From positions 1 to 9,965 of the forward strand of contig JAJRTK010000350.1 in NCBI GenBank assembly GCA_024278345.1: a stretch of 9,965 bases of DNA, written 5' to 3'. Below, one piece after another: positions 80 through 9,965 of the stretch. Under the pieces are notes generated by a model. The model was not told where the DNA came from, made no database searches, and saw only the letters and a list, made by a program, of their open reading frames with translations. The translations under genes were made by a program, and so were the position numbers. Within the stretch, counting starts at the first letter, position 1. Every line of letters starts with the position of its first letter. This stretch comes from a bacterium. Lineage in GTDB: Bacteria > CSSED10-310 > JAJRTK01.

Positions 80-2107
80 ATGTTTCTGGACGAAATGCGA
101 GCGTTGGCCCTTGATTTTCTACAGCGAAAAATCCATTTCGGAGGATTCCAGGAGCAGGCGAACCGCGATCCTGAGGCGTGGTACCGGAACCTGCGCGACC
201 AAGAGACCGCAATACTCTTGCGCTACCTGCTGGAGCCGCCGGGCAGGATTGAGCGCATTTATGTGTTGAAACCCATGGAAGGAGACGCTGAGGCGCTCTC
301 TTTGGAAGCTCACGATTTGACTGAGGAAAAAGCGCGCCGAGTGCCCTTCGCCAAGCCCAGCGGCTCCCAATCGCGTTGGTTCGGACCGGTGGTGAAACGA
401 TCTTCACAAAAAGGCAAAGGCCCAGGACCGAAGCTCAAAATCGTGGAGAGCAGCATCACCGGTTTCAGGGAAAAAGCGGCATCGGGTGAACCATGGGCGG
501 GCTATTTCCGAGAGATCGTGGAGTTGCTCGAGCAGCGGCCTGTTCTGGTCCTTCCCGACGGGACCCGTATCGAACCGGAATCCCGGGCCACGGAGACCGG
601 AGCCCCTGCACTATCGACCGCCATCCAAATAATCAACGAAAAAAAGACTGTGTTCCTTATCGTGGCCGATCACGAAGGGCGTTGGCCCGGTGATCGCAAG
701 GAGTATACCAGTTACTTGCAGGCCAAGCTGTCCGAGAGATACGTCACCAAAAATGCTCCGGCGGAACCCCAGAAGGATTGTTCCCTTTGCGCCGCCAAGG
801 ATGTGACAGTCTACGCCAACGGAATCAAAGGCGCCGGCATCAATTTCTCCAACATGGAGCGAACCGGCGCGTTTCCCGGTGTCCAGCCAAGCGACGCCTG
901 GAAAAGATTCGCTATCTGCAGCGCCTGCGCCGATCTCATTACGGTCTATAAAAACCATGTTGCCAAGGATTACGAGGCTCAGGTGGCCGGTGAAAAGGTC
1001 CTCGTGGTCCCCAGAATCGATCCTCCTCATAGTCAGCGTCGGACATTCTCGAAACGCGTCCAAGCTTGGCTCGCTTTGACCAAAGAGGGAACGAAGTCCA
1101 AGGAAGAGCAACTGCTGAGGATTCTCCGCAAGCACCCAGGCCTGGTCACCCTGAATTTCCTTTGGGTGAAGATGGGGCAACACATCGAGGAGTGCCGGGG
1201 AGTGGTCTCGGAAGTTCCGCCAACCCGCCTCATGGAACTCAGTACCCGGAACTTGGAAGCGAACCGCTGGAATTCGCCAGTCTTTCCAAGACAACAGGTC
1301 CATGACTGCCAATTCGATCTCAGCCTTCAATTCCTCGGCTCCCTGTTGAAGCGGCCCGGCGGCAACGTAGCGACAAAAGTTAATAACAGCTCCAGTCTCC
1401 GCAACCAGAGGATCGCTCTCTGCCAGGCCCTTTACCATAAGAGGCCCATGGATGAAACGGCCTTTTATCAGGAATGGCATGAAACGGCCTGTTGGTATCT
1501 CCTGGAGTTCCTCCGCACAGACCGGGAACAGAACGGGTTTTCGAAAAGCCGGTGGATGAGCCTCTTTCTGGAAAGCACCGAAAAGCAAGCTGGCAAGGGG
1601 ATTCTCACGTTTGCGAGTTGGATGCGTCACACAGCTCGTTTTCTTCACTACCTACGGATGGAAGGAGTCTTTCCCATGATCAACACATTCTACGAGCCCA
1701 AGATGGAGGATCTCAAACCCTATTTCACGGCGGAGAGCGGAATCGATTGCCCGGAAAAAGCCTTTGCCTTTCTTCTTGGCGTCTTGTTCGGATATCTCAT
1801 GCGGGTTCAGGGAGCGCGGAAGGTCAATGTCGCCGCCAACGCCCTCACCTGGCTACGCCGCCTGTCGCTGAAGGGCAAGGATCTTCCCGAGCTCTATGTC
1901 AAGATCCGCGGAAAGCTCCTGGAATACGGCTCGGAAAAGGACTCCGATCTCCGGGAACTCATCGAGGAGATCGGCCGCCTTGGCGTCCGCCTAGGCGATT
2001 CGATTTCCCTGGATCATGTAAAAGCCTCTTATTTCTTGTTGCTGGGGCAATCCCTCAACCGGGAGGTTCTTCCCAAAAAGGAAAAAAAAGCGGAGGAAAC
2101 CCCATGA
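80..2107 (+). CDS. cas8b: Type I-B Cascade large subunit Cas8b (TM1802/Csh1-like)
   Basis: This 675-residue protein is the probable large subunit of the type I-B Cascade complex, which in this family takes part in PAM recognition and Cas3 recruitment. The visible hallmark is a putative four-cysteine zinc-binding site: CSLC (Cys234, Cys237) and CSAC (Cys280, Cys283), typical of TM1802-type Cas8b. The length fits the family. The C-terminal third is helix-rich and ends with a segment around ASYFLLLGQSLNRE, which resembles the end of other Csh1 proteins, so the gene looks full length. The start at 80 is supported by AAAGGAGG six bases upstream. It is the first gene of the cas8b-cas7-cas5-cas3 module, which supports the call. 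An A8 run at 2082-2089 lies just before the stop, and the TGA overlaps the ATG of a small ORF. The assignment rests on motif, length and context, since Cas8 sequences diverge fast. Confidence 0.88.
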   Translation: MFLDEMRALALDFLQRKIHFGGFQEQANRDPEAWYRNLRDQETAILLRYLLEPPGRIERIYVLKPMEGDAEALSLEAHDLTEEKARRVPFAKPSGSQSRWFGPVVKRSSQKGKGPGPKLKIVESSITGFREKAASGEPWAGYFREIVELLEQRPVLVLPDGTRIEPESRATETGAPALSTAIQIINEKKTVFLIVADHEGRWPGDRKEYTSYLQAKLSERYVTKNAPAEPQKDCSLCAAKDVTVYANGIKGAGINFSNMERTGAFPGVQPSDAWKRFAICSACADLITVYKNHVAKDYEAQVAGEKVLVVPRIDPPHSQRRTFSKRVQAWLALTKEGTKSKEEQLLRILRKHPGLVTLNFLWVKMGQHIEECRGVVSEVPPTRLMELSTRNLEANRWNSPVFPRQQVHDCQFDLSLQFLGSLLKRPGGNVATKVNNSSSLRNQRIALCQALYHKRPMDETAFYQEWHETACWYLLEFLRTDREQNGFSKSRWMSLFLESTEKQAGKGILTFASWMRHTARFLHYLRMEGVFPMINTFYEPKMEDLKPYFTAESGIDCPEKAFAFLLGVLFGYLMRVQGARKVNVAANALTWLRRLSLKGKDLPELYVKIRGKLLEYGSEKDSDLRELIEEIGRLGVRLGDSISLDHVKASYFLLLGQSLNREVLPKKEKKAEETP

Positions 2108-2268
2108 CGGCTTACGGCAGGTTGGTGCTGAAACGGTTTCTGGGCAGCCACAGGATCTTTGGGCCGTGGAAAAGGCGACTGGCGGGCGGCGGCTGCCGCG
2201 CGACGGGAGCGGACCCAACCCCAAAAAAGGAGAAAGCGTCGTCGAAAAATCGTGCCCCGAAAATGTAA
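2104..2268 (+). CDS. Possible small basic protein between cas8b and cas7
   Basis: This is a 54-residue ORF that I do not recognise. Its ATG overlaps the cas8b stop as ATGA, and GGAGG at 2092-2096 lies seven bases before it, which is the ideal arrangement for translational coupling. Its third codon positions are G/C-rich, as in the neighbouring genes. The product is strongly basic with many Lys and Arg, has a short aromatic and hydrophobic N-terminus (begins MTAYGRLVLKRF) and a low-complexity Lys-rich tail. No membrane segment or known domain is visible. It is far shorter than known Cas11 small subunits, so that role is only a guess. It may instead be a chance ORF in a 237-base spacer, since another frame (2106-2330) is also open. 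It stops at TAA, 76 bases before cas7. Confidence 0.35.
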   Translation: MTAYGRLVLKRFLGSHRIFGPWKRRLAGGGCRATGADPTPKKEKASSKNRAPKM

Positions 2269-2331
2269 TGTGCCCGGAGTTGCTGACGCGATCCCAGCCT
2301 GACCGCGAAACCCATTTATTGACTTTGAGAT

Positions 2332-2337
2332 AGGAGG
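2332..2337 (+). promoter_or_regulatory. Ribosome binding site of cas7
   Basis: AGGAGG lies seven bases before the ATG at 2345. It supports that start and independent initiation on cas7, giving strong translation of the subunit needed in most copies per Cascade. Confidence 0.8.
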
Positions 2338-2344
2338 TTTTTCC

Positions 2345-3175
2345 ATGAACTCGTCCACGATCCTCGATTCTCGCCGTGAAATCCTTTTTCTTTACGATAT
2401 TCGCATGGGCAATCCCAACGGCGATCCCGACGAAAACCGGCCCAGGGTTCTTCCCGATGGCACACATTTCGTCACCGACGTGCGTCTGAAACGCTTTGTC
2501 CGGGACTTCCTGAAAACGCAGGGCCACGACATCCTGGTGGACACGGTGGAGGGGAAGACCAAGAACCTCACCGGTCGCGTCGCCGCCTACCTGGAAAGCA
2601 AAGGCGAGAAGGAGGCCAAAGGCGAAAGGCTCGTTGAAATATTGCTGGACTCCTTGATCGATGCCCGGCTTTTCGGCAGCACGTTCGCTTTCAAGGAAAA
2701 AAACTGGAAGCCAATTCCCAAGACGCTCACCGGCGCGGTTCAATTCAACCACGGAGAAGTGCTTCATCGCGCCCAGGAAATCAGTATCGCCGGGACCAGC
2801 ATTTTTTCGAGCTCTGAAGACAAGGAACAGGGCACGTTCACTAACTACCACGCGCTACGCTACGCACTCATCGGATTCGCCGGGGTGGCGAATGAACACT
2901 CGGCTCGCTTGAGCCGGATGACCGCAAATGATTATGAGTGGCTTCTCCATGGCCTCTGGAACGGTGTCCGCGCCGCCGGAAACACCCGTACCAAGGTGGG
3001 TCAGGTGCCCCGGCTCCTTCTCTCCATCGAATATCATCCGACAGAGGAGTTTCAGTTCGGTTCGCTTTTGGACTATCTCAAGCTCGCCCCGGCCGGGGAC
3101 AAACCGGAAATTGAATGGAAGAGTCCCGACGACTACGTCTTGGATTTGAGCCTACTGGGGAAACGCCTGTCCTAG
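2345..3175 (+). CDS. cas7: Type I-B Cascade backbone subunit Cas7 (Csh2), ending at an internal UAG
   Basis: Cas7 polymerises along the crRNA spacer to form the Cascade backbone. Read with the standard code the protein has 276 residues. Family marks near the N-terminus are GNPNGDPDENRPR (about 22-34) and TDVRLKRFVRDF (44-55), typical of Csh2/Cas7 proteins, which bind crRNA through an RRM-like fold. FGSTFAF, the TGAVQF segment and GNTRTKVGQVPR also fit. The start has AGGAGG seven bases upstream. The reading stops at TAG (3173-3175) in the middle of what looks like a helix. The same frame then continues for 50 codons to a TGA at 3326-3328, giving a 327-residue protein closer to the usual family length. 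The UAG is either a nonsense mutation, a sequencing error or a codon that is read through. Family and context are secure; whether the product is full length is not. Confidence 0.9.
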   Translation: MNSSTILDSRREILFLYDIRMGNPNGDPDENRPRVLPDGTHFVTDVRLKRFVRDFLKTQGHDILVDTVEGKTKNLTGRVAAYLESKGEKEAKGERLVEILLDSLIDARLFGSTFAFKEKNWKPIPKTLTGAVQFNHGEVLHRAQEISIAGTSIFSSSEDKEQGTFTNYHALRYALIGFAGVANEHSARLSRMTANDYEWLLHGLWNGVRAAGNTRTKVGQVPRLLLSIEYHPTEEFQFGSLLDYLKLAPAGDKPEIEWKSPDDYVLDLSLLGKRLS

Positions 3176-3328
3176 CAGCGCCAGCGGATCCGCCGGGTCG
3201 CCTTCGCCACTTCCCCGGATCTCCGATGGGCGGTGCCTCTCGAGGAACTCCTGGCCGGAAGCATTGGCAAAAACCCCGAGGTGCTCGACCTCGATTCGCC
3301 TCGACAAGCGGAAGGCGTGGAGAAATGA
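3173..3328 (+). other. In-frame continuation of cas7 beyond the UAG codon
   Basis: After TAG at 3173-3175 the cas7 frame stays open for 50 codons and ends at TGA 3326-3328, whose bases overlap an ATG at 3325 as ATGA. The peptide begins QRQRIRRVAFATSPDLRW and looks like a natural ending: helix, then a strand of the sort seen at the C-terminal end of the Csh2 core. I count 36 of 50 third positions as G or C, in line with neighbouring coding DNA. No start codon with a ribosome binding site precedes it in this frame, so it is unlikely to be a separate gene. It is best read as the C-terminal part of Cas7, split by one codon. Confidence 0.8.
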
Positions 3329-3375: not shown

Positions 3376-4092
3376 ATGAGGCTCGTGAAGTTCCGATTGC
3401 GTGGAAAGCTGGGGCACTATCTGCGGGCTGAGACAAGTGCCAGCGCCCTCTCCTATCCGGTTCCGCCAAGGACGGCGATCTTGGGCGTCGTTGGCGCCAT
3501 CCTGGGCCTGGCGAAAGATGAACCGCCCGTGCTTCTGGAACCGGCCTCCATCGCTCTTTCGGGAAGGCTGCCAGCCACCTGCTGGCACAAGATCAAGCTC
3601 AGGAAGGATCCGCCCAGGCCCTTGCCATTCTCCGTGAAGGCGGGAATTAAGGGAAGCTCCAAGGATGAGAAGCCCACCCTTATCCTCCAAGAGTGGCTAT
3701 GGAAACCTGATTACATCATCCGTGCGGCCCTGCCGGAAGAATACCAGCAGGCGTTTTTGAAGCGTCTTCAGGAGCGGAGATGGCATTTTTCGCCCTGCCT
3801 GGGCCTGTCGGAGATGGGGGCCGACCTCGAGTTCCTGGATGAGGTGGAATGCGAGAGATTGGCTTCCGGCTGCTACGAAGTGACCGGAGTTGTTCCGACG
3901 GGCGGGGGTCGATTGCACGACGACGCCTTCAACCGGGGCCTCTCTCTTCGGGTGGAGCAATTGCCCCGTACATGTACCGGCGACCGCCTTTTCACCCGCG
4001 CCACTTACTATATGGAGAAAAACGCGGAGCCCATCCCGTTCGAGACAGACGAGGCGTGGAGGGCCGGAGAAGAGGTTTTCCTCTTTCTCTGA
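3376..4092 (+). CDS. cas5: Type I-B Cascade subunit Cas5 (Cas5h/Cas5b)
   Basis: This 238-residue protein is the Cas5 subunit, which caps the 5' handle of the crRNA and anchors Cas8b in Cascade. The N-terminus (MRLVKFRLRGKLGHYLRAET) followed by SALSYPVPPRTAILGVVGAILGL is characteristic of the Cas5 RAMP fold in I-B systems. Since a Cas6 is present, Cas5 is not expected to process crRNA. The chosen ATG has GGGGAG at 3364-3369, six bases upstream, and matches where the family core begins. An alternative ATG at 3325, overlapping the extended cas7 stop as ATGA, would add 17 residues. The same frame is open further upstream to 3115, but that part only shadows cas7. The gene ends in TGA, 28 bases before cas3. 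Confidence 0.88.
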   Translation: MRLVKFRLRGKLGHYLRAETSASALSYPVPPRTAILGVVGAILGLAKDEPPVLLEPASIALSGRLPATCWHKIKLRKDPPRPLPFSVKAGIKGSSKDEKPTLILQEWLWKPDYIIRAALPEEYQQAFLKRLQERRWHFSPCLGLSEMGADLEFLDEVECERLASGCYEVTGVVPTGGGRLHDDAFNRGLSLRVEQLPRTCTGDRLFTRATYYMEKNAEPIPFETDEAWRAGEEVFLFL

Positions 4093-4120: not shown

Positions 4121-6559
4121 ATGAACGGTCATCCCCGAACAGATTCCAACGGAAAACTCTTGTCCCATCCGGACGTGGAGTTGAGAACGCACGTGGAGCA
4201 GGTTCTGGAAGCGGCCCGATCCGCCCTCGACGGCCACAGCAGTTCCATGCGCTCCTCTTGGCCGTTGCTGGAGATCGTCGTCAGACTTCACGACCTGGGC
4301 AAGGGATCGGCGGCGTTTCAACGCTACATCCGCGATCCGAAGGGATTTCGTGAACCCCGAAGCGAAAAGGCCCATGCGTCGCTTTCCATGTTGCTGGGAT
4401 TGCGCTGGATTGCCCGGAAAGAAGGGCTGGGAAACAAGGAGCATCTTCCTCTTTTCCGGAAACAGGACTGGATCATCCTGGTGGCCCAGGCCGTGGGCGG
4501 CCACCACCGAGGGCTTGGGAGTGGAAACGACCTGGATCAATGGCTCTTGCGGGACGAAACCATCGATGCCTTCGACCGCCAACTGGAGGCTCTTCCCCTC
4601 ACGCGCCTTGGCGAAGCCGTTGGCCTCGACCTATCGTCTTCCCTTCTCGATGAAGAAGAACCCTGGTTCGCCGCCGCCGAGGACCTGGAGGAAGCCCTAG
4701 AAGAGTTGGAAAACGAGGCACCTTGCCAGCTCTTGAACACGAGGCTCTCGATACAGTTCATCTTTTCCATCTTACTGGAGGCCGATAAAACTTTCCTGGC
4801 CGTCACGAACCCGCGGGACCATCTGACCCGGCCCAGAAGAAAACTGGAGCCCGGCTTGGTGGACCATTACCTGGAGAAACTTGTAGGCCCCGTCAATGCT
4901 GCTCTTCCACGTATGGCACCCTGCTCCCGAGTCCGTTCTCCGGCGCCTCCGAGCGGCTGCGATTCGGTCCAGAGTCTGTCGATGAACGCGCTTCGAAGGC
5001 GAGCCCGCAATCAGGTGCTGGAGAGCCTGGCAACGACCGGAAAGAAACGCTTCTTTTCCATGACTCTACCGACCGGTATGGGCAAAACCTTGAATGCCGC
5101 AACCTGGGCGTTGAGCCTCCGCGAGGCGGTGGCGGCTTCTGGAGAGCCTCCTCCCAGAATCATCGTCGCCATGCCCTTCTTGTCCATCATCGACCAGACG
5201 GAATCGGTTTGGCGGCAGCTTCTGGGAGACCCCGGGGGGGAGGTTCTGCTTCCCAGCCATTCAGTGGCGGATCGCACCTACGATCACGAACTGGACTGTT
5301 CCACGGCGGAGTTTTTCGTCGATACATGGCGGAGCGAAGTCGTTCTCACCACCTTCGATCAACTATTCATGGCCCTTCTGGACCGCCGGCCCAGGCACCA
5401 GATGCGGATGCACAACCTGGTGGATTCTCTTCTCATCCTGGACGAAATCCAGACTCTACCCTGCAACATTTGGGATCCTGTTGGAGCCATGCTCACGAAT
5501 CTGGCCTCCATGGGAGAAACAAGGATTCTGGCCATGAGCGCCACTCTTCCCCCCATCTTTCCCGGCACCCACCCGCTCATTCCCGACTTCGATGACTACT
5601 TCCAACATTTCCAGCGCTACCGGCTGGATCTTTCGGGGCTGGGACAAGAGTCGGATATCGGGGATTTTGCCCATCGCTGCGCTGTGAGAAGCGAAGAGTG
5701 GTTGGAGCGGGAACTCCGAGTCCTCATCACCCTCAACACTCGTGCATCGGCCCGCCTGGTGCGCTCAAATCTTGCCGAAACCGTTCCGGAGGAGCATCTG
5801 GAATTCCTGAGCGGCGATGTCACTCCCCGCGATAGGCTGACCGCCATCCGGAGGATCCGGGCCGGCGAGCCCTGCATCGTCGTCTCCACCCAGTGCGTCG
5901 AGGCCGGTGTCGATATCGACATGGACCTGGTTCTGAGGGACCTCGCGCCTCTGGATTCCCTGGTCCAAATCGCCGGCCGGTGCAATCGGAATGCCACAAA
6001 GTCGTGTCAGACCGTAGAGATCGTCTACATCCTGGACGGAAAAGGCAAGGCGGATTGCCGGAAGATCTACGATCCCGTGCATCTCCAGGAAACCTGGCGC
6101 CTGTTCCAGGGAAGATGCCAAATCGAAGAGCGGGAAGTCCGAGAACTTTGCGGCGACTACTTCCAAGCCCTGGCCTCCAAGAAAGAAACCGGTGCCGCCA
6201 CCACGGCGAAGCTGGCCAATTGGGAATATGCGGGGCTCGATGTCCGCGCGGCTCTTCGAGGCCGAGCGAGTGACAAGCTCGATCTCCTTGTCTCCGAACA
6301 AGACAGTCCCCTCCTGGTCAAGCTGGAAGAAGCTCTAGATGAACGAAACCGCTGGGAACGCAGAAGAAAACTGCGCAAGCTCGCACCGGAGATTCGCGCA
6401 ACCAGTATCAGCATTTACCCACGTCCCGGCCTGGACCCGAACACCTTCGCCAAACCGCGTCGCTGGTTCTGGATCCTAGACCCGGGATTCTACAACCCCA
6501 GAACGGGATTCCAGCCCCCGGAGACCCAGTCTCACGACGGAGCCTTGGAAATCTTCTGA
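4121..6559 (+). CDS. cas3: Cas3 nuclease-helicase (HD domain fused to DExD/H helicase)
   Basis: This 812-residue effector nuclease is recruited by target-bound Cascade, nicks the displaced strand and degrades DNA while translocating 3' to 5' with ATP. An N-terminal HD domain shows His24, HD at 57-58 within HDLGKG, His85, the HH pair at 128-129 (GGHH) and a likely final Asp222. The superfamily 2 helicase follows: Walker A LPTGMGKT (316-323, Lys322), motif Ia around AMPFLSIIDQT, motif II DEIQ (441-444), motif III SAT (473-475) and motif VI QIAGRCNRN (616-624). A Cas3 C-terminal region makes up the rest. All metal and ATP residues expected are present, so it should be active. The ATG at 4121 has GGGAAG-like bases just upstream and starts 28 bases after cas5. 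The frame is open from 3890, but that part overlaps cas5. It is the last gene of the interference module. Confidence 0.95.
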   Translation: MNGHPRTDSNGKLLSHPDVELRTHVEQVLEAARSALDGHSSSMRSSWPLLEIVVRLHDLGKGSAAFQRYIRDPKGFREPRSEKAHASLSMLLGLRWIARKEGLGNKEHLPLFRKQDWIILVAQAVGGHHRGLGSGNDLDQWLLRDETIDAFDRQLEALPLTRLGEAVGLDLSSSLLDEEEPWFAAAEDLEEALEELENEAPCQLLNTRLSIQFIFSILLEADKTFLAVTNPRDHLTRPRRKLEPGLVDHYLEKLVGPVNAALPRMAPCSRVRSPAPPSGCDSVQSLSMNALRRRARNQVLESLATTGKKRFFSMTLPTGMGKTLNAATWALSLREAVAASGEPPPRIIVAMPFLSIIDQTESVWRQLLGDPGGEVLLPSHSVADRTYDHELDCSTAEFFVDTWRSEVVLTTFDQLFMALLDRRPRHQMRMHNLVDSLLILDEIQTLPCNIWDPVGAMLTNLASMGETRILAMSATLPPIFPGTHPLIPDFDDYFQHFQRYRLDLSGLGQESDIGDFAHRCAVRSEEWLERELRVLITLNTRASARLVRSNLAETVPEEHLEFLSGDVTPRDRLTAIRRIRAGEPCIVVSTQCVEAGVDIDMDLVLRDLAPLDSLVQIAGRCNRNATKSCQTVEIVYILDGKGKADCRKIYDPVHLQETWRLFQGRCQIEEREVRELCGDYFQALASKKETGAATTAKLANWEYAGLDVRAALRGRASDKLDLLVSEQDSPLLVKLEEALDERNRWERRRKLRKLAPEIRATSISIYPRPGLDPNTFAKPRRWFWILDPGFYNPRTGFQPPETQSHDGALEIF

Positions 6560-6847
6560 CCCACCCTAACCAACCCTCACCGGCCAACAACAAGGTCAAC
6601 GATCAGTCGATTCCAGCTATGCCCCCAATTCCGAATCGTGTTCGTCGTCCAGGGTATAGATCCCGATCAACTCTTTGTTTTTCATATGCTACATTCCGCT
6701 CACATCGGCGGCAGTCCGTCCGCCGCTGCTCGCCATTGTCGCCGCTCTCCCTATCCATCGCCCAGAGACTGAAGCACCGCCGGATTCTCAGCTACGTCCT
6801 GAGTCTCCGTCGTGAAAGTTACACCCCGCCACAATAAGAGCCTTCCC
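6560..6847 (+). other. Gap between cas3 and cas6 without a convincing gene
   Basis: This 288-base stretch separates the interference genes from cas6-cas1-cas2-cas4. An open frame at 6619-6837 gives a Ser/Arg-rich peptide without a ribosome binding site or recognisable motif, so I reject it. CGGCGG (6706-6711) and CCGCCG (6720-6725) can form a six-base-pair hairpin with an eight-base loop, but no U-tract follows, so it is not a clear terminator. An A/T-richer patch at about 6670-6695 contains TATGCT, and TATAGA occurs at 6655-6660. Neither has a matching -35 box at the right distance. A second promoter for the downstream genes is plausible but not shown. Confidence 0.5.
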
Positions 6848-7582
6848 ATGCCCCCCAAAATTGCTCCCCCGGAAAACGCTCACAAAGATACGCCCATTCG
6901 CATCGCCCGGCTCACTCTCCACACCGAACCACCTGCTGCAACGGCCTCACTGGCCGATCTGAGAGGCGCCATCGCCCGGATAGCCCCAGAACTCGACCTG
7001 CTCCACCAGCACACAGAAAAGGGATTCCTTTACCGATACCCTAAAGTGCAGTACCGCAGAAATGGAGGAAAGTTCGGGATTATCGGCATCGACGAAGGAG
7101 CTTGCATCCTGCTGAAACTTCCCCTGGCCGGAACTTCCCTCCACCTCCGCAACCGCCGCTACCGCATCGTTCGGTGCGATATCTCACTGTCCGAATCGAC
7201 TCTCCGAGTCACATCCCAACTCCGCCACTACCGCCTCCAAACTCCAGCACTCCTGCTCAACAAGGAAAACTTCATCCGCTATGGAAAACTCGTCGGACCC
7301 GAACGCTCCGCCTTTCTTGACCGGATCTGCGTCTCTCAAATCCTCCGGGTAGCCAAGGGAATCGGAGTCTGGCTCAATAACGAAGTCATCGCGGCTCTTG
7401 CTCTTCAAAAGACCCTTCCCTGCACGTTCAAAAAACGCACCTTTCTTGGATTCCAAGGAGAACTGATCACGAACGTCGAACTGCCTCCGGGCATTGGCTT
7501 CGGAAAAGCCGTCGCGTTCGGATATGGCGTCTTGGCGTCAGTGGGAGCCACCGCAAGGCCCGCGAACCTCCACGAATCCTGA
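6848..7582 (+). CDS. cas6: CRISPR RNA processing endonuclease Cas6 (Cas6b-like)
   Basis: Cas6 cuts the array transcript within each repeat and leaves an eight-base 5' handle on the crRNA. The 244-residue protein resembles the Cas6b group: LRGAIARIAPELDLLHQH (from about residue 38), then GFLYRYPKVQY, then GKFGIIGIDEGA, and a C-terminal glycine-rich RNA-binding loop PPGIGFGKAVAFGYGVL (213-229). His53 and His55 in LLHQHT lie where paired catalytic histidines are found in characterised Cas6b proteins. The ATG at 6848 is preferred; a GTG at 6812 in the same frame would add 12 residues but has no ribosome binding site. The binding site before 6848 is also weak. The gene ends in TGA, 58 bases before cas1. 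Placement next to the adaptation genes rather than with Cascade is less usual. The predicted substrate is the repeat at the end of this window. Confidence 0.87.
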   Translation: MPPKIAPPENAHKDTPIRIARLTLHTEPPAATASLADLRGAIARIAPELDLLHQHTEKGFLYRYPKVQYRRNGGKFGIIGIDEGACILLKLPLAGTSLHLRNRRYRIVRCDISLSESTLRVTSQLRHYRLQTPALLLNKENFIRYGKLVGPERSAFLDRICVSQILRVAKGIGVWLNNEVIAALALQKTLPCTFKKRTFLGFQGELITNVELPPGIGFGKAVAFGYGVLASVGATARPANLHES

Positions 7583-7640: not shown

Positions 7641-8657
7641 ATGCAGCTTGTAGTCCAAAGCACGGGTACTTCCATTCGTCGTCATGAAGGCTGCTTCGAG
7701 CTTCGCAACGGTGATCGGAAACGAAGAATCGCCCCCAACCGCATCGAGAGCATCGTATTGGGTGATCGGTGTTTCCTTTCTACAAGCGCTCTTCTCTTGG
7801 CGCTGGACCACAATATCGACGTCTTGGTCATGGACCATTTCGGGGATCCCGTGGGCCGATTCTGGCGGGCCAAGTTGGGAAATACGGCGAGAATTCGCCG
7901 ACGCCAATTGGAGGCGGGGCGGACAGAAGTGGGCCGCCGAATTGTCCAAGAGTTGTTGACCCAGAAGTTGAAAAACCAACGAAAATTCATCAAGCGCCTC
8001 CAAGAGGCCCGGCGAAAGCGCCACGCGGAGTTCATTCCCGCCCTTGAGTCTCTGGACAAAGCCATCATGGGCATCGCCGCCATCCAGGAACTTTTGCCGG
8101 GCTCCAGAGAGGCTTTTATGGCGGTGGAAGGCGGCGCGGCACGCCACTACTACGAGCAAATATCCCGTATTCTTCCCACGGCCTACCGCTTTCCGAGGCG
8201 CAGCCGAAGGCCAGCGGAAGACCCCTTCAATGCGGCCTTGAACTACGCTTTCGGGATGCTCTACTCCACCGTGGAAAGAGCCTGCCTTTTGGCCGGCCTC
8301 GATCCTCAAACCGGTCTTCTTCACGCTGACAGCTACAACAGACCCGGGATGGTTTTGGATTTGATCGAACCCTTCCGAATTTGCGTCGAACGGCCTGTCG
8401 TCTATCTATTCACCGGGCGCCGGTTCTCCGACGACGACTTTCAACGGACCGAAACCGCCACGACCCTGAGCGACTCCGGAAAGAAAAAAATCGTCGAAAC
8501 CGTCTTGAAAAGCCTCGATGAACGGGTCCGCTTCCGAAAACGAAACCTCAGCAGAAAAATGGTCATCCAACAGGAAGCCCACCGGCTGGGAAACTGGCTC
8601 CTATCCGAACAAGCCACTTGTCCAGATCCCACCTGGCTCGAAATCGAGGAGTTGTGA
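7641..8657 (+). CDS. cas1: CRISPR adaptation integrase Cas1
   Basis: This 338-residue integrase forms the Cas1-Cas2 complex that inserts new spacers at the leader-repeat junction. Catalytic metal residues are all visible: Glu163 in VEGGAARHYY, His228 in GLLHADSYNRPG, and the acidic pair Asp240 and Glu243 in LDLIEPFR. The N-terminal beta domain and C-terminal helical domain are both present and the length is normal. AGGAG at 7631-7635, preceded by a run of A, lies five bases before the ATG. The frame stays open 147 bases upstream, but that part overlaps the end of cas6 and has no matching binding site. cas2 begins three bases after the TGA, so the two are almost certainly co-translated. Confidence 0.97.
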   Translation: MQLVVQSTGTSIRRHEGCFELRNGDRKRRIAPNRIESIVLGDRCFLSTSALLLALDHNIDVLVMDHFGDPVGRFWRAKLGNTARIRRRQLEAGRTEVGRRIVQELLTQKLKNQRKFIKRLQEARRKRHAEFIPALESLDKAIMGIAAIQELLPGSREAFMAVEGGAARHYYEQISRILPTAYRFPRRSRRPAEDPFNAALNYAFGMLYSTVERACLLAGLDPQTGLLHADSYNRPGMVLDLIEPFRICVERPVVYLFTGRRFSDDDFQRTETATTLSDSGKKKIVETVLKSLDERVRFRKRNLSRKMVIQQEAHRLGNWLLSEQATCPDPTWLEIEEL

Positions 8658-8660
8658 ACC

Positions 8661-8966
8661 ATGCCCGCGAAACCCTACATGGTATGGGTCCTCTACGACA
8701 TTCAAAAAAACAAGATCCGCACCAAGGTGTCCAAGATCTGCAAGCAACTGGGCCTGGAAAGAGTTCAGTACAGCGCGTTCCTGGGGCCGCTTCCCAAGAA
8801 TCGCATCGACGAGCTGGCCCTCCAATGCCAGAGCCTCATCGACGAGGAAACTGATCGTGTCTACATCTTCCCCTTCTGCGACAGAGACTTCGATAACATC
8901 AGAGTCATCGGAATCGGCTTCGACAAGGACTACATCAAGGGCGAAACGCTCCAGGCATTCTTCTGA
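8661..8966 (+). CDS. cas2: CRISPR adaptation protein Cas2
   Basis: This 101-residue protein is the Cas2 dimer that bridges two Cas1 dimers during spacer integration. It has the ferredoxin-like start VWVLYDI with the conserved aspartate at residue 13, then VSKICKQLGLERVQYSAFLG, and the typical tail strand VIGIGF near the end. The ATG at 8661 has GAGGAG at 8646-8651, nine bases upstream, inside the end of cas1. A second ATG at 8679 would remove six residues and sits closer to the family's usual start, but has a weaker site. The stop is TGA. The cas4 frame is open right across the end of this gene. Confidence 0.96.
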   Translation: MPAKPYMVWVLYDIQKNKIRTKVSKICKQLGLERVQYSAFLGPLPKNRIDELALQCQSLIDEETDRVYIFPFCDRDFDNIRVIGIGFDKDYIKGETLQAFF

Positions 8967-9773: not shown

Positions 9774-9965
9774 GTCTGAAGCATCAATCCAGCAAAACAA
9801 GGATTGAAACGATCTCCACGAGCTCGAAGCCCAAGCGCTTTTCCCCCGTCTGAAGCATCAATCCAGCAAAACAAGGATTGAAACTAGTGAGAGCACTCGG
9901 TCCATCCCCCGGCTCGCACCAGTCTGAAGCATCAATCCAGCAAAACAAGGATTGAAACTCATGAG
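9774..9965 (+). CRISPR. CRISPR array, leader-proximal end (three repeats, continues past window)
   Basis: Three identical 37-base repeats lie at 9774-9810, 9848-9884 and 9922-9958. They begin GTCTGAAGCATC and end GGATTGAAAC. Two complete spacers of 37 bases each lie at 9811-9847 and 9885-9921, and a third starts at 9959 and is cut by the window end. The ATTGAAAC end is the 5' crRNA handle expected in I-B systems and sets transcription on the + strand, away from cas4. TCAATCC (9784-9790 in repeat 1) can pair with GGATTGA (9801-9807) to form a seven-base-pair hairpin with a ten-base loop. Cas6 cutting eight bases before the repeat end would then fall inside the 3' arm of the stem. Perfect repeat identity and leader placement suggest recent spacers and an array still in use. 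Confidence 0.98.

What the first reader, a model, noticed from the sequence alone, without database searches (positions are those of the whole stretch)
3173..3328. In-frame UAG inside cas7 with an intact 50-codon continuation
The cas7 frame meets TAG at 3173-3175, then runs 50 codons without a stop to TGA 3326-3328, which overlaps an ATG as ATGA. The continuation has G/C-rich third positions (36 of 50 counted) and supplies a C-terminal strand and helix expected in Csh2, bringing the protein to 327 residues. Nothing but one codon is damaged in an otherwise intact locus. The codon may be a recent nonsense mutation (one change from CAG, AAG, GAG, TCG, TTG, TGG or TAC/TAT), a sequencing error, a suppressed or recoded UAG, or a leaky stop (UAG followed by C). 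Loss of the Cas7 end would probably disable Cascade, so each option has a different meaning for immunity.
Basis: partly seen in the sequence, partly recalled or inferred. Interest (0 to 1): 0.72.

Follow-up and report, generated by a model that had tools for sequence, protein, structure and literature searches.

The report
Broken CRISPR gene: stop inside cas7
A bacterial CRISPR immune gene (cas7) carries one early stop codon just before its last 50 codons, which are still intact; this is most likely an ordinary recent inactivating mutation or a sequence error, and not a special way of reading the code.

Summary
The csh2/cas7 frame starts at 2345, meets TAG at 3173-3175 and continues open to TGA 3326-3328. 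The continuation is the true Cas7 C-terminus: all 34 intact homologues aligned run on over it. Its similarity to them is normal (rank 10-11 of 35), and 0 of 20,000 shuffles of it align as well. Every test of genome-wide recoding was negative: prfA is present, no PylS exceeds the cut-off, none of 48 tRNAs has a CUA anticodon, and TAG ends 197 of 673 well-coded ORFs in 1.28 Mb of this genome. A crude survey of that sample also found a TAG-broken kinase-like gene and two TAA-broken genes, so in-frame stops are not special to UAG. The RNA downstream is no more structured than shuffles. Nonsense codons in cas7 occur elsewhere too: a Spirochaetes homologue has TAA nine codons further on. A published parallel is the TAG in csy2 of E. 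coli UTI89, where sibling strains have CAG. Best reading: a recent nonsense mutation that removes the last core strand of Cas7 and probably disables type I-B interference. A MAG base error is the main rival; only reads can exclude it. Interest is low.

The parts
2345..3175 (+). cas7 (csh2), 276 codons up to the in-frame TAG
   Evidence: NCBIfam TIGR02590 191 bits, cut-off 171.55; Pfam PF05107
3173..3175 (+). In-frame TAG. It lies at a variable position: the 34 relatives have G, E, Q, D, K and others here
3176..3328 (+). Intact remainder of cas7: 50 codons and TGA. Encodes the last high-confidence strand (residues 282-289), invariant D292 and a short helix (299-304)
   Evidence: alignment A1, AlphaFold2 model, similarity test
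80..2107 (+). cas8b (TM1802 type), intact
   Evidence: Pfam PF09484; PADLOC Cas8b
3376..4092 (+). cas5b, intact; an alternative upstream start ATG 3325 overlaps the normal cas7 stop
   Evidence: TIGR02592 and TIGR02593; PADLOC Cas5b
4121..6559 (+). cas3 (HD nuclease and helicase), intact; the start is inferred from the reading frame
6812..7582 (+). cas6b, intact
   Evidence: Pfam Cas6b_N and Cas6b_C
7641..8657 (+). cas1, intact; the start is inferred
   Evidence: PF01867; PADLOC Cas1b
8661..8966 (+). cas2, intact
   Evidence: PF09827
9046..9615 (+). cas4 domain (start codon not settled)
   Evidence: TIGR00372; PADLOC Cas4b
9774..9958 (+). CRISPR array: three 37-nt repeats and two 37-nt spacers, near the contig end

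Best explanation
It is a recent single-codon nonsense mutation in the cas7 (csh2) gene of an otherwise complete type I-B CRISPR-Cas locus. Translation ends at codon 277 and gives a 276-residue Cas7. Shown: the gene identity, the stop, and that the next 50 codons are the conserved C-terminus with normal similarity to relatives. Inferred: the truncated protein lacks the last strand of its core sheet and fails to fold or to build the Cascade backbone, so crRNA is not held and interference is off. Adaptation genes (cas1, cas2, cas4) remain intact. Translation of cas5, which in most relatives starts next to the cas7 stop, may also be reduced.
For: All 34 intact homologues aligned continue past the stop. 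Similarity of residues 278-296 to them is within one SD of the intact genes (identity 0.339 against mean 0.379, SD 0.059; rank 10 of 35), so the damage is recent if real. Eight further cas ORFs (or domains) are open. In the AlphaFold2 model the stop falls at the end of helix 269-277 and removes strand 282-289, in blocks of pLDDT about 95; solved Csh2 7xz3 aligns over model residues 5-315 (Z 26.3). Similar events exist: TAA at query residue 286 in L008, frameshift near residue 130 in L049, one-stop hits in two Bacillota genomes (G470, G295). The genome holds other genes interrupted by TAG and TAA. Published parallel: csy2 of E. coli UTI89 has TAG where sibling strains have CAG, and nonsense mutations in cas10 and cas6 arose in selected escapers (PMC3784566). 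Cas5, Cas6 and Cas7 were needed for stable crRNA in the type I-B system of Haloferax (PMC3945376).
Against: No reads and no sibling genome were available, so a base error in the assembly gives the same picture. No self-targeting that would explain selection for loss was found: neither of the two readable spacers matches elsewhere in the genome with up to 3 mismatches. The array is cut by the contig end. That the truncated protein is inactive is not tested.
Confidence: 0.62

Rival explanations
1. The TAG is a base error of sequencing, assembly or consensus calling in a metagenome-assembled genome; the living cell has an intact cas7.
For: The genome is a draft in 550 contigs, 87.9% complete. The continuation has no sign of decay and the rest of the locus is intact. 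Three other interrupted genes were found in 1.28 Mb, with TAG and TAA, as scattered errors would also give.
Against: Single-base substitution errors are uncommon in assembled short-read consensus (general knowledge). No base qualities or coverage were seen, so nothing here argues for it directly.
Confidence: 0.28
2. UAG is read as an amino acid here, by recoding, a suppressor tRNA or pyrrolysine, and full-length Cas7 of 327 residues is made.
For: The frame beyond the stop is open and conserved, and the stop lies at a variable position that would tolerate many residues. A second TAG-interrupted gene exists: an APH-type kinase, with the Pfam match 31-250 across codon 144.
Against: prfA is present at full score. 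PylS matches are far under the cut-off, 23 bits against 178. None of 48 distinct tRNAs has anticodon CUA. TAG ends 197 of 673 well-coded ORFs; coding-like continuations follow 5% of TAG, 3% of TGA and 8% of TAA, so there is no TAG excess. Two genes are interrupted by TAA, and TAG has the largest mutational opportunity: 48,036 codons one change away against 25,766 for TAA and 21,117 for TGA.
Confidence: 0.04
3. A leaky, regulated stop: a few percent of ribosomes read through, giving a little full-length Cas7 and a low or tunable level of immunity.
For: The next base is C. Intact reading frame downstream. A Spirochaetes homologue has a stop nine codons further on.
Against: Downstream RNA is no more structured than shuffles (z -0.44). 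The other cases have another stop codon and place. All 34 intact homologues have a sense codon or a gap here, so the stop is not conserved.
Confidence: 0.04
4. The protein normally ends at 276 and the following frame is chance.
For: Open 50-codon stretches after a stop are common in this genome (96 of 233), and the codon-usage signal of this stretch is weak.
Against: Homology to the C-terminus of all 34 intact relatives, including invariant D292; 0 of 20,000 shuffles reach the similarity; TIGR02590 is extended from position 244 to 282. In most relatives cas5 starts within a few nucleotides of the cas7 stop, which fits TGA 3326 and not TAG 3173.
Confidence: 0.02

Closest known systems
Cas7/Csh2 of type I-B CRISPR-Cas (NCBIfam TIGR02590; PDB 7xz3 from Thermobaculum terrenum)
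   Same: Sequence over the whole length, predicted fold (Z 26.3 over model residues 5-315), gene order cas8b-cas7-cas5-cas3
   Different: An in-frame TAG at codon 277 truncates the product before the last conserved strand
Nonsense-inactivated cas genes, for example csy2 of E. coli UTI89 (PMC3784566)
   Same: Premature TAG in a Cascade subunit gene of an otherwise intact locus
   Different: There, sibling strains with an intact codon and a spacer against a resident plasmid are known; here neither sibling nor self-target was found, and the subtype is I-B instead of I-F
csh2 of a Spirochaetes MAG (L008, JAJSAL010000117.1)
   Same: A single in-frame stop in the same C-terminal stretch, with the frame and homology continuing
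   Different: TAA instead of TAG, nine codons further on; a related genome (L006) has a sense codon there

Membership tests
Cas7/Csh2 (type I-B) | Profile match above the curated cut-off | tested here: met
   TIGR02590 191.3 bits truncated and 197.3 read through, cut-off 171.55; PF05107 164 bits, cut-off 33.2
Cas7/Csh2 (type I-B) | Neighbouring cas8b, cas5b, cas3, cas6b, cas1, cas2, cas4 and a CRISPR array | tested here: met
Cas7/Csh2 (type I-B) | Complete C-terminal strand in the translated product | tested here: not met
   Present only beyond the TAG. It is a damaged member by sequence; whether it still works as Cas7 was not tested
Nonsense-inactivated cas gene | In-frame stop with conserved homologous frame beyond it | tested here: met
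Nonsense-inactivated cas gene | Intact codon in sibling strains | tested here: inconclusive
   No genome of the same genus or family was held; the nearest relatives (60-70% identity) all have sense codons
Nonsense-inactivated cas gene | Stop present in the living population | not testable with these tools
   No reads available
Pyrrolysine or other UAG recoding | PylS or another dedicated synthetase | tested here: not met
   Best match 23 bits against a cut-off of 178.15 in an 87.9% complete genome
Pyrrolysine or other UAG recoding | tRNA with CUA anticodon | tested here: not met
   None among 48 distinct tRNAs; the genome is incomplete
Pyrrolysine or other UAG recoding | UAG rare as a real stop, or loss of prfA | tested here: not met
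   prfA present; TAG ends 197 of 673 well-coded ORFs

The most novel reading that the evidence does not exclude
The C-terminal strand of Csh2 is a recurrent site of reversible inactivation: cells keep a type I-B locus with intact adaptation genes, silenced by one stop codon near the end of cas7 and leaky or revertible enough to be regained. The two independent stops nine codons apart, in the window and in a Spirochaetes genome, would be instances.
Probability: 0.03. Interest if true: 0.5.

Novelty: new member of a known kind. Interest (0 to 1): 0.12.

Why it matters
It is a small, clean example of a Cascade gene broken by one codon while the rest of the locus looks functional. It warns against calling a CRISPR system active from gene content alone, and against reading isolated in-frame stops in MAGs as recoding. 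If the stop is real, the locus could acquire spacers without being able to use them.

Tried and rejected
Genome-wide UAG recoding was tested five ways (PylS, prfA, tRNA anticodons, stop usage, coding-like continuations by stop type) and rejected. A first look at ten TAG candidates gave a second TAG-interrupted gene and none for TGA or TAA; this hint of a TAG bias disappeared when the sample was enlarged and two TAA-interrupted genes were found. The survey is crude: my codon-score filter would itself miss the window's cas7 (continuation score 2.1 against a threshold of 6), so the counts are lower bounds, not rates. Readthrough-stimulating RNA structure: none. Self-targeting spacers: none for the two readable spacers in the own genome, and none for the first spacer in phage records. 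A second intact csh2 in the assembly: none; the only other Cas7 is on contig C296 and aligns only over query residues 10-116. Phylum relatives of G134 added nothing, and viral contigs gave only two distant matches. A second structure prediction, of the truncated protein, was not run because AlphaFold2 responds poorly to truncation.

Full report
What is there. The window is the whole of contig C280 of a 6.06 Mb draft genome in 550 contigs, 87.9% complete. It carries a type I-B CRISPR-Cas locus in the order cas8b, cas7, cas5b, cas3, cas6b, cas1, cas2, cas4, and an array of three 37-nt repeats that is cut off at the contig end. The cas7 (csh2) ORF starts at ATG 2345 and meets TAG at 3173-3175. 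Read through, it ends at TGA 3326-3328 with 327 residues. The finding's coordinates and its GC3 count of 36 of 50 are right.

Is the continuation real. An open stretch of 50 codons after a stop is common in this genome, 96 of 233 ORFs, and codon usage alone is weak evidence. Homology settles it. A scan gave 56 loci, most at 57-70% identity with matches to query residues 293-301 or beyond. All 34 intact homologues placed in alignment A1 continue past the stop, and D292 is invariant. Residues 278-296 are as similar to the relatives as an intact gene would be: identity 0.339 against a mean of 0.379 with SD 0.059, rank 10 of 35. None of 20,000 shuffles of the continuation aligns as well. TIGR02590 is extended from profile position 244 to 282 of 286. 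In most relatives cas5 begins within a few nucleotides of the cas7 stop, which fits TGA 3326. The stop itself sits at a variable column where relatives have G, E, Q, D, K and others.

What is lost. The AlphaFold2 model of the read-through protein has mean pLDDT 84.3. The stop falls at the end of helix 269-277, and strand 282-289, in blocks with pLDDT about 95, lies beyond it. The model matches the solved Csh2 7xz3 over residues 5-315 (Z 26.3) and type I-C Cas7 chains up to residues 289-290, so that strand is part of the shared fold. That a protein without it cannot build Cascade is inference. In Haloferax, Cas5, Cas6 and Cas7 are needed for stable crRNA in the type I-B system (PMC3945376).

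Is UAG recoded. No evidence. prfA is present at 491.7 bits. The best PylS matches have 23 bits against a cut-off of 178. None of 48 distinct tRNAs has a CUA anticodon. In 1.28 Mb of the genome TAG ends 197 of 673 well-coded ORFs, and coding-like continuations follow TAG (10 of 197), TGA (10 of 386) and TAA (7 of 90) without a TAG excess. Pfam scans of read-through candidates found an APH-type kinase interrupted by TAG, a protein kinase interrupted by TAA inside its GTxxYMxPEQ-like motif, and a 2-hydroxyglutaryl-CoA dehydratase-type gene interrupted by TAA. In-frame stops are thus scattered over this assembly and not special to UAG. The survey is crude and its counts are lower bounds. The RNA downstream of the stop is no more structured than shuffles.

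How common it is. Among the close homologues, L008 (Spirochaetes) has an in-frame TAA nine codons after the window's position, where the related L006 has a sense codon, and L049 is frameshifted near residue 130. A search of 398 genomes of the phylum of G199 (the Bacillota genome of L016) listed two Cas7 matches with one internal stop among well over a hundred. Loss of a cas gene by a nonsense codon is a published route: csy2 of E. coli UTI89 has TAG where sibling strains have CAG, and nonsense mutations in cas10 and cas6 arose in Staphylococcus escapers that accepted a targeted plasmid (PMC3784566).

Mechanism and verdict. The most likely account (0.62) is a recent nonsense mutation that truncates Cas7 and probably switches off interference while the adaptation genes remain. 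A base error in the draft assembly (0.28) would look the same and can only be excluded with reads. Recoding (0.04), a regulated leaky stop (0.04) and a natural end at 276 (0.02) are unlikely. No reason for selection against the system was found: the two readable spacers have no match elsewhere in the genome, but the rest of the array is missing.

Noticed in passing
window 2108-2344: The gap between cas8b and cas7 is 237 nt, against roughly 0-70 nt (alignment-based) in nearly all of 44 relatives compared. A 54-codon ORF from ATG 2104 (ATGA overlap with the cas8b stop) lies in it and has no match in the relatives.
   Followed up: partly
L008:3865-3867 (JAJSAL010000117.1, Spirochaetes): csh2 with an in-frame TAA at query residue 286 in an otherwise intact gene; the related L006 reads through with a serine codon.
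   Followed up: partly
L049 (JAGWBW010000080.1, Latescibacterota), about 3384-3430: csh2 split by a frameshift near query residue 130.
   Followed up: no
L136:6880-8037 (-), G000:C5: APH-family phosphotransferase-like gene interrupted by TAG at codon 144; the Pfam match spans the stop.
   Followed up: partly
L124:5947-8850 (-), G000:C306; L213:5278-6672 (-), G000:C51: Two genes interrupted by TAA (a protein kinase with TPRs, and a 2-hydroxyglutaryl-CoA dehydratase D-component) with Pfam matches across the stop.
   Followed up: partly
L131 (G000:C296), 5427-6230: A second Cas7 gene in the same genome, 328 bits to PF05107, aligning with the window's Cas7 only over residues 10-116: probably a separate CRISPR system of another subtype.
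   Followed up: no
L121:2872-2944 (-), G000:C257: A tRNA-like gene with a two-base anticodon reading '(tg)' by ARAGORN, a weak or degenerate tRNA.
   Followed up: no
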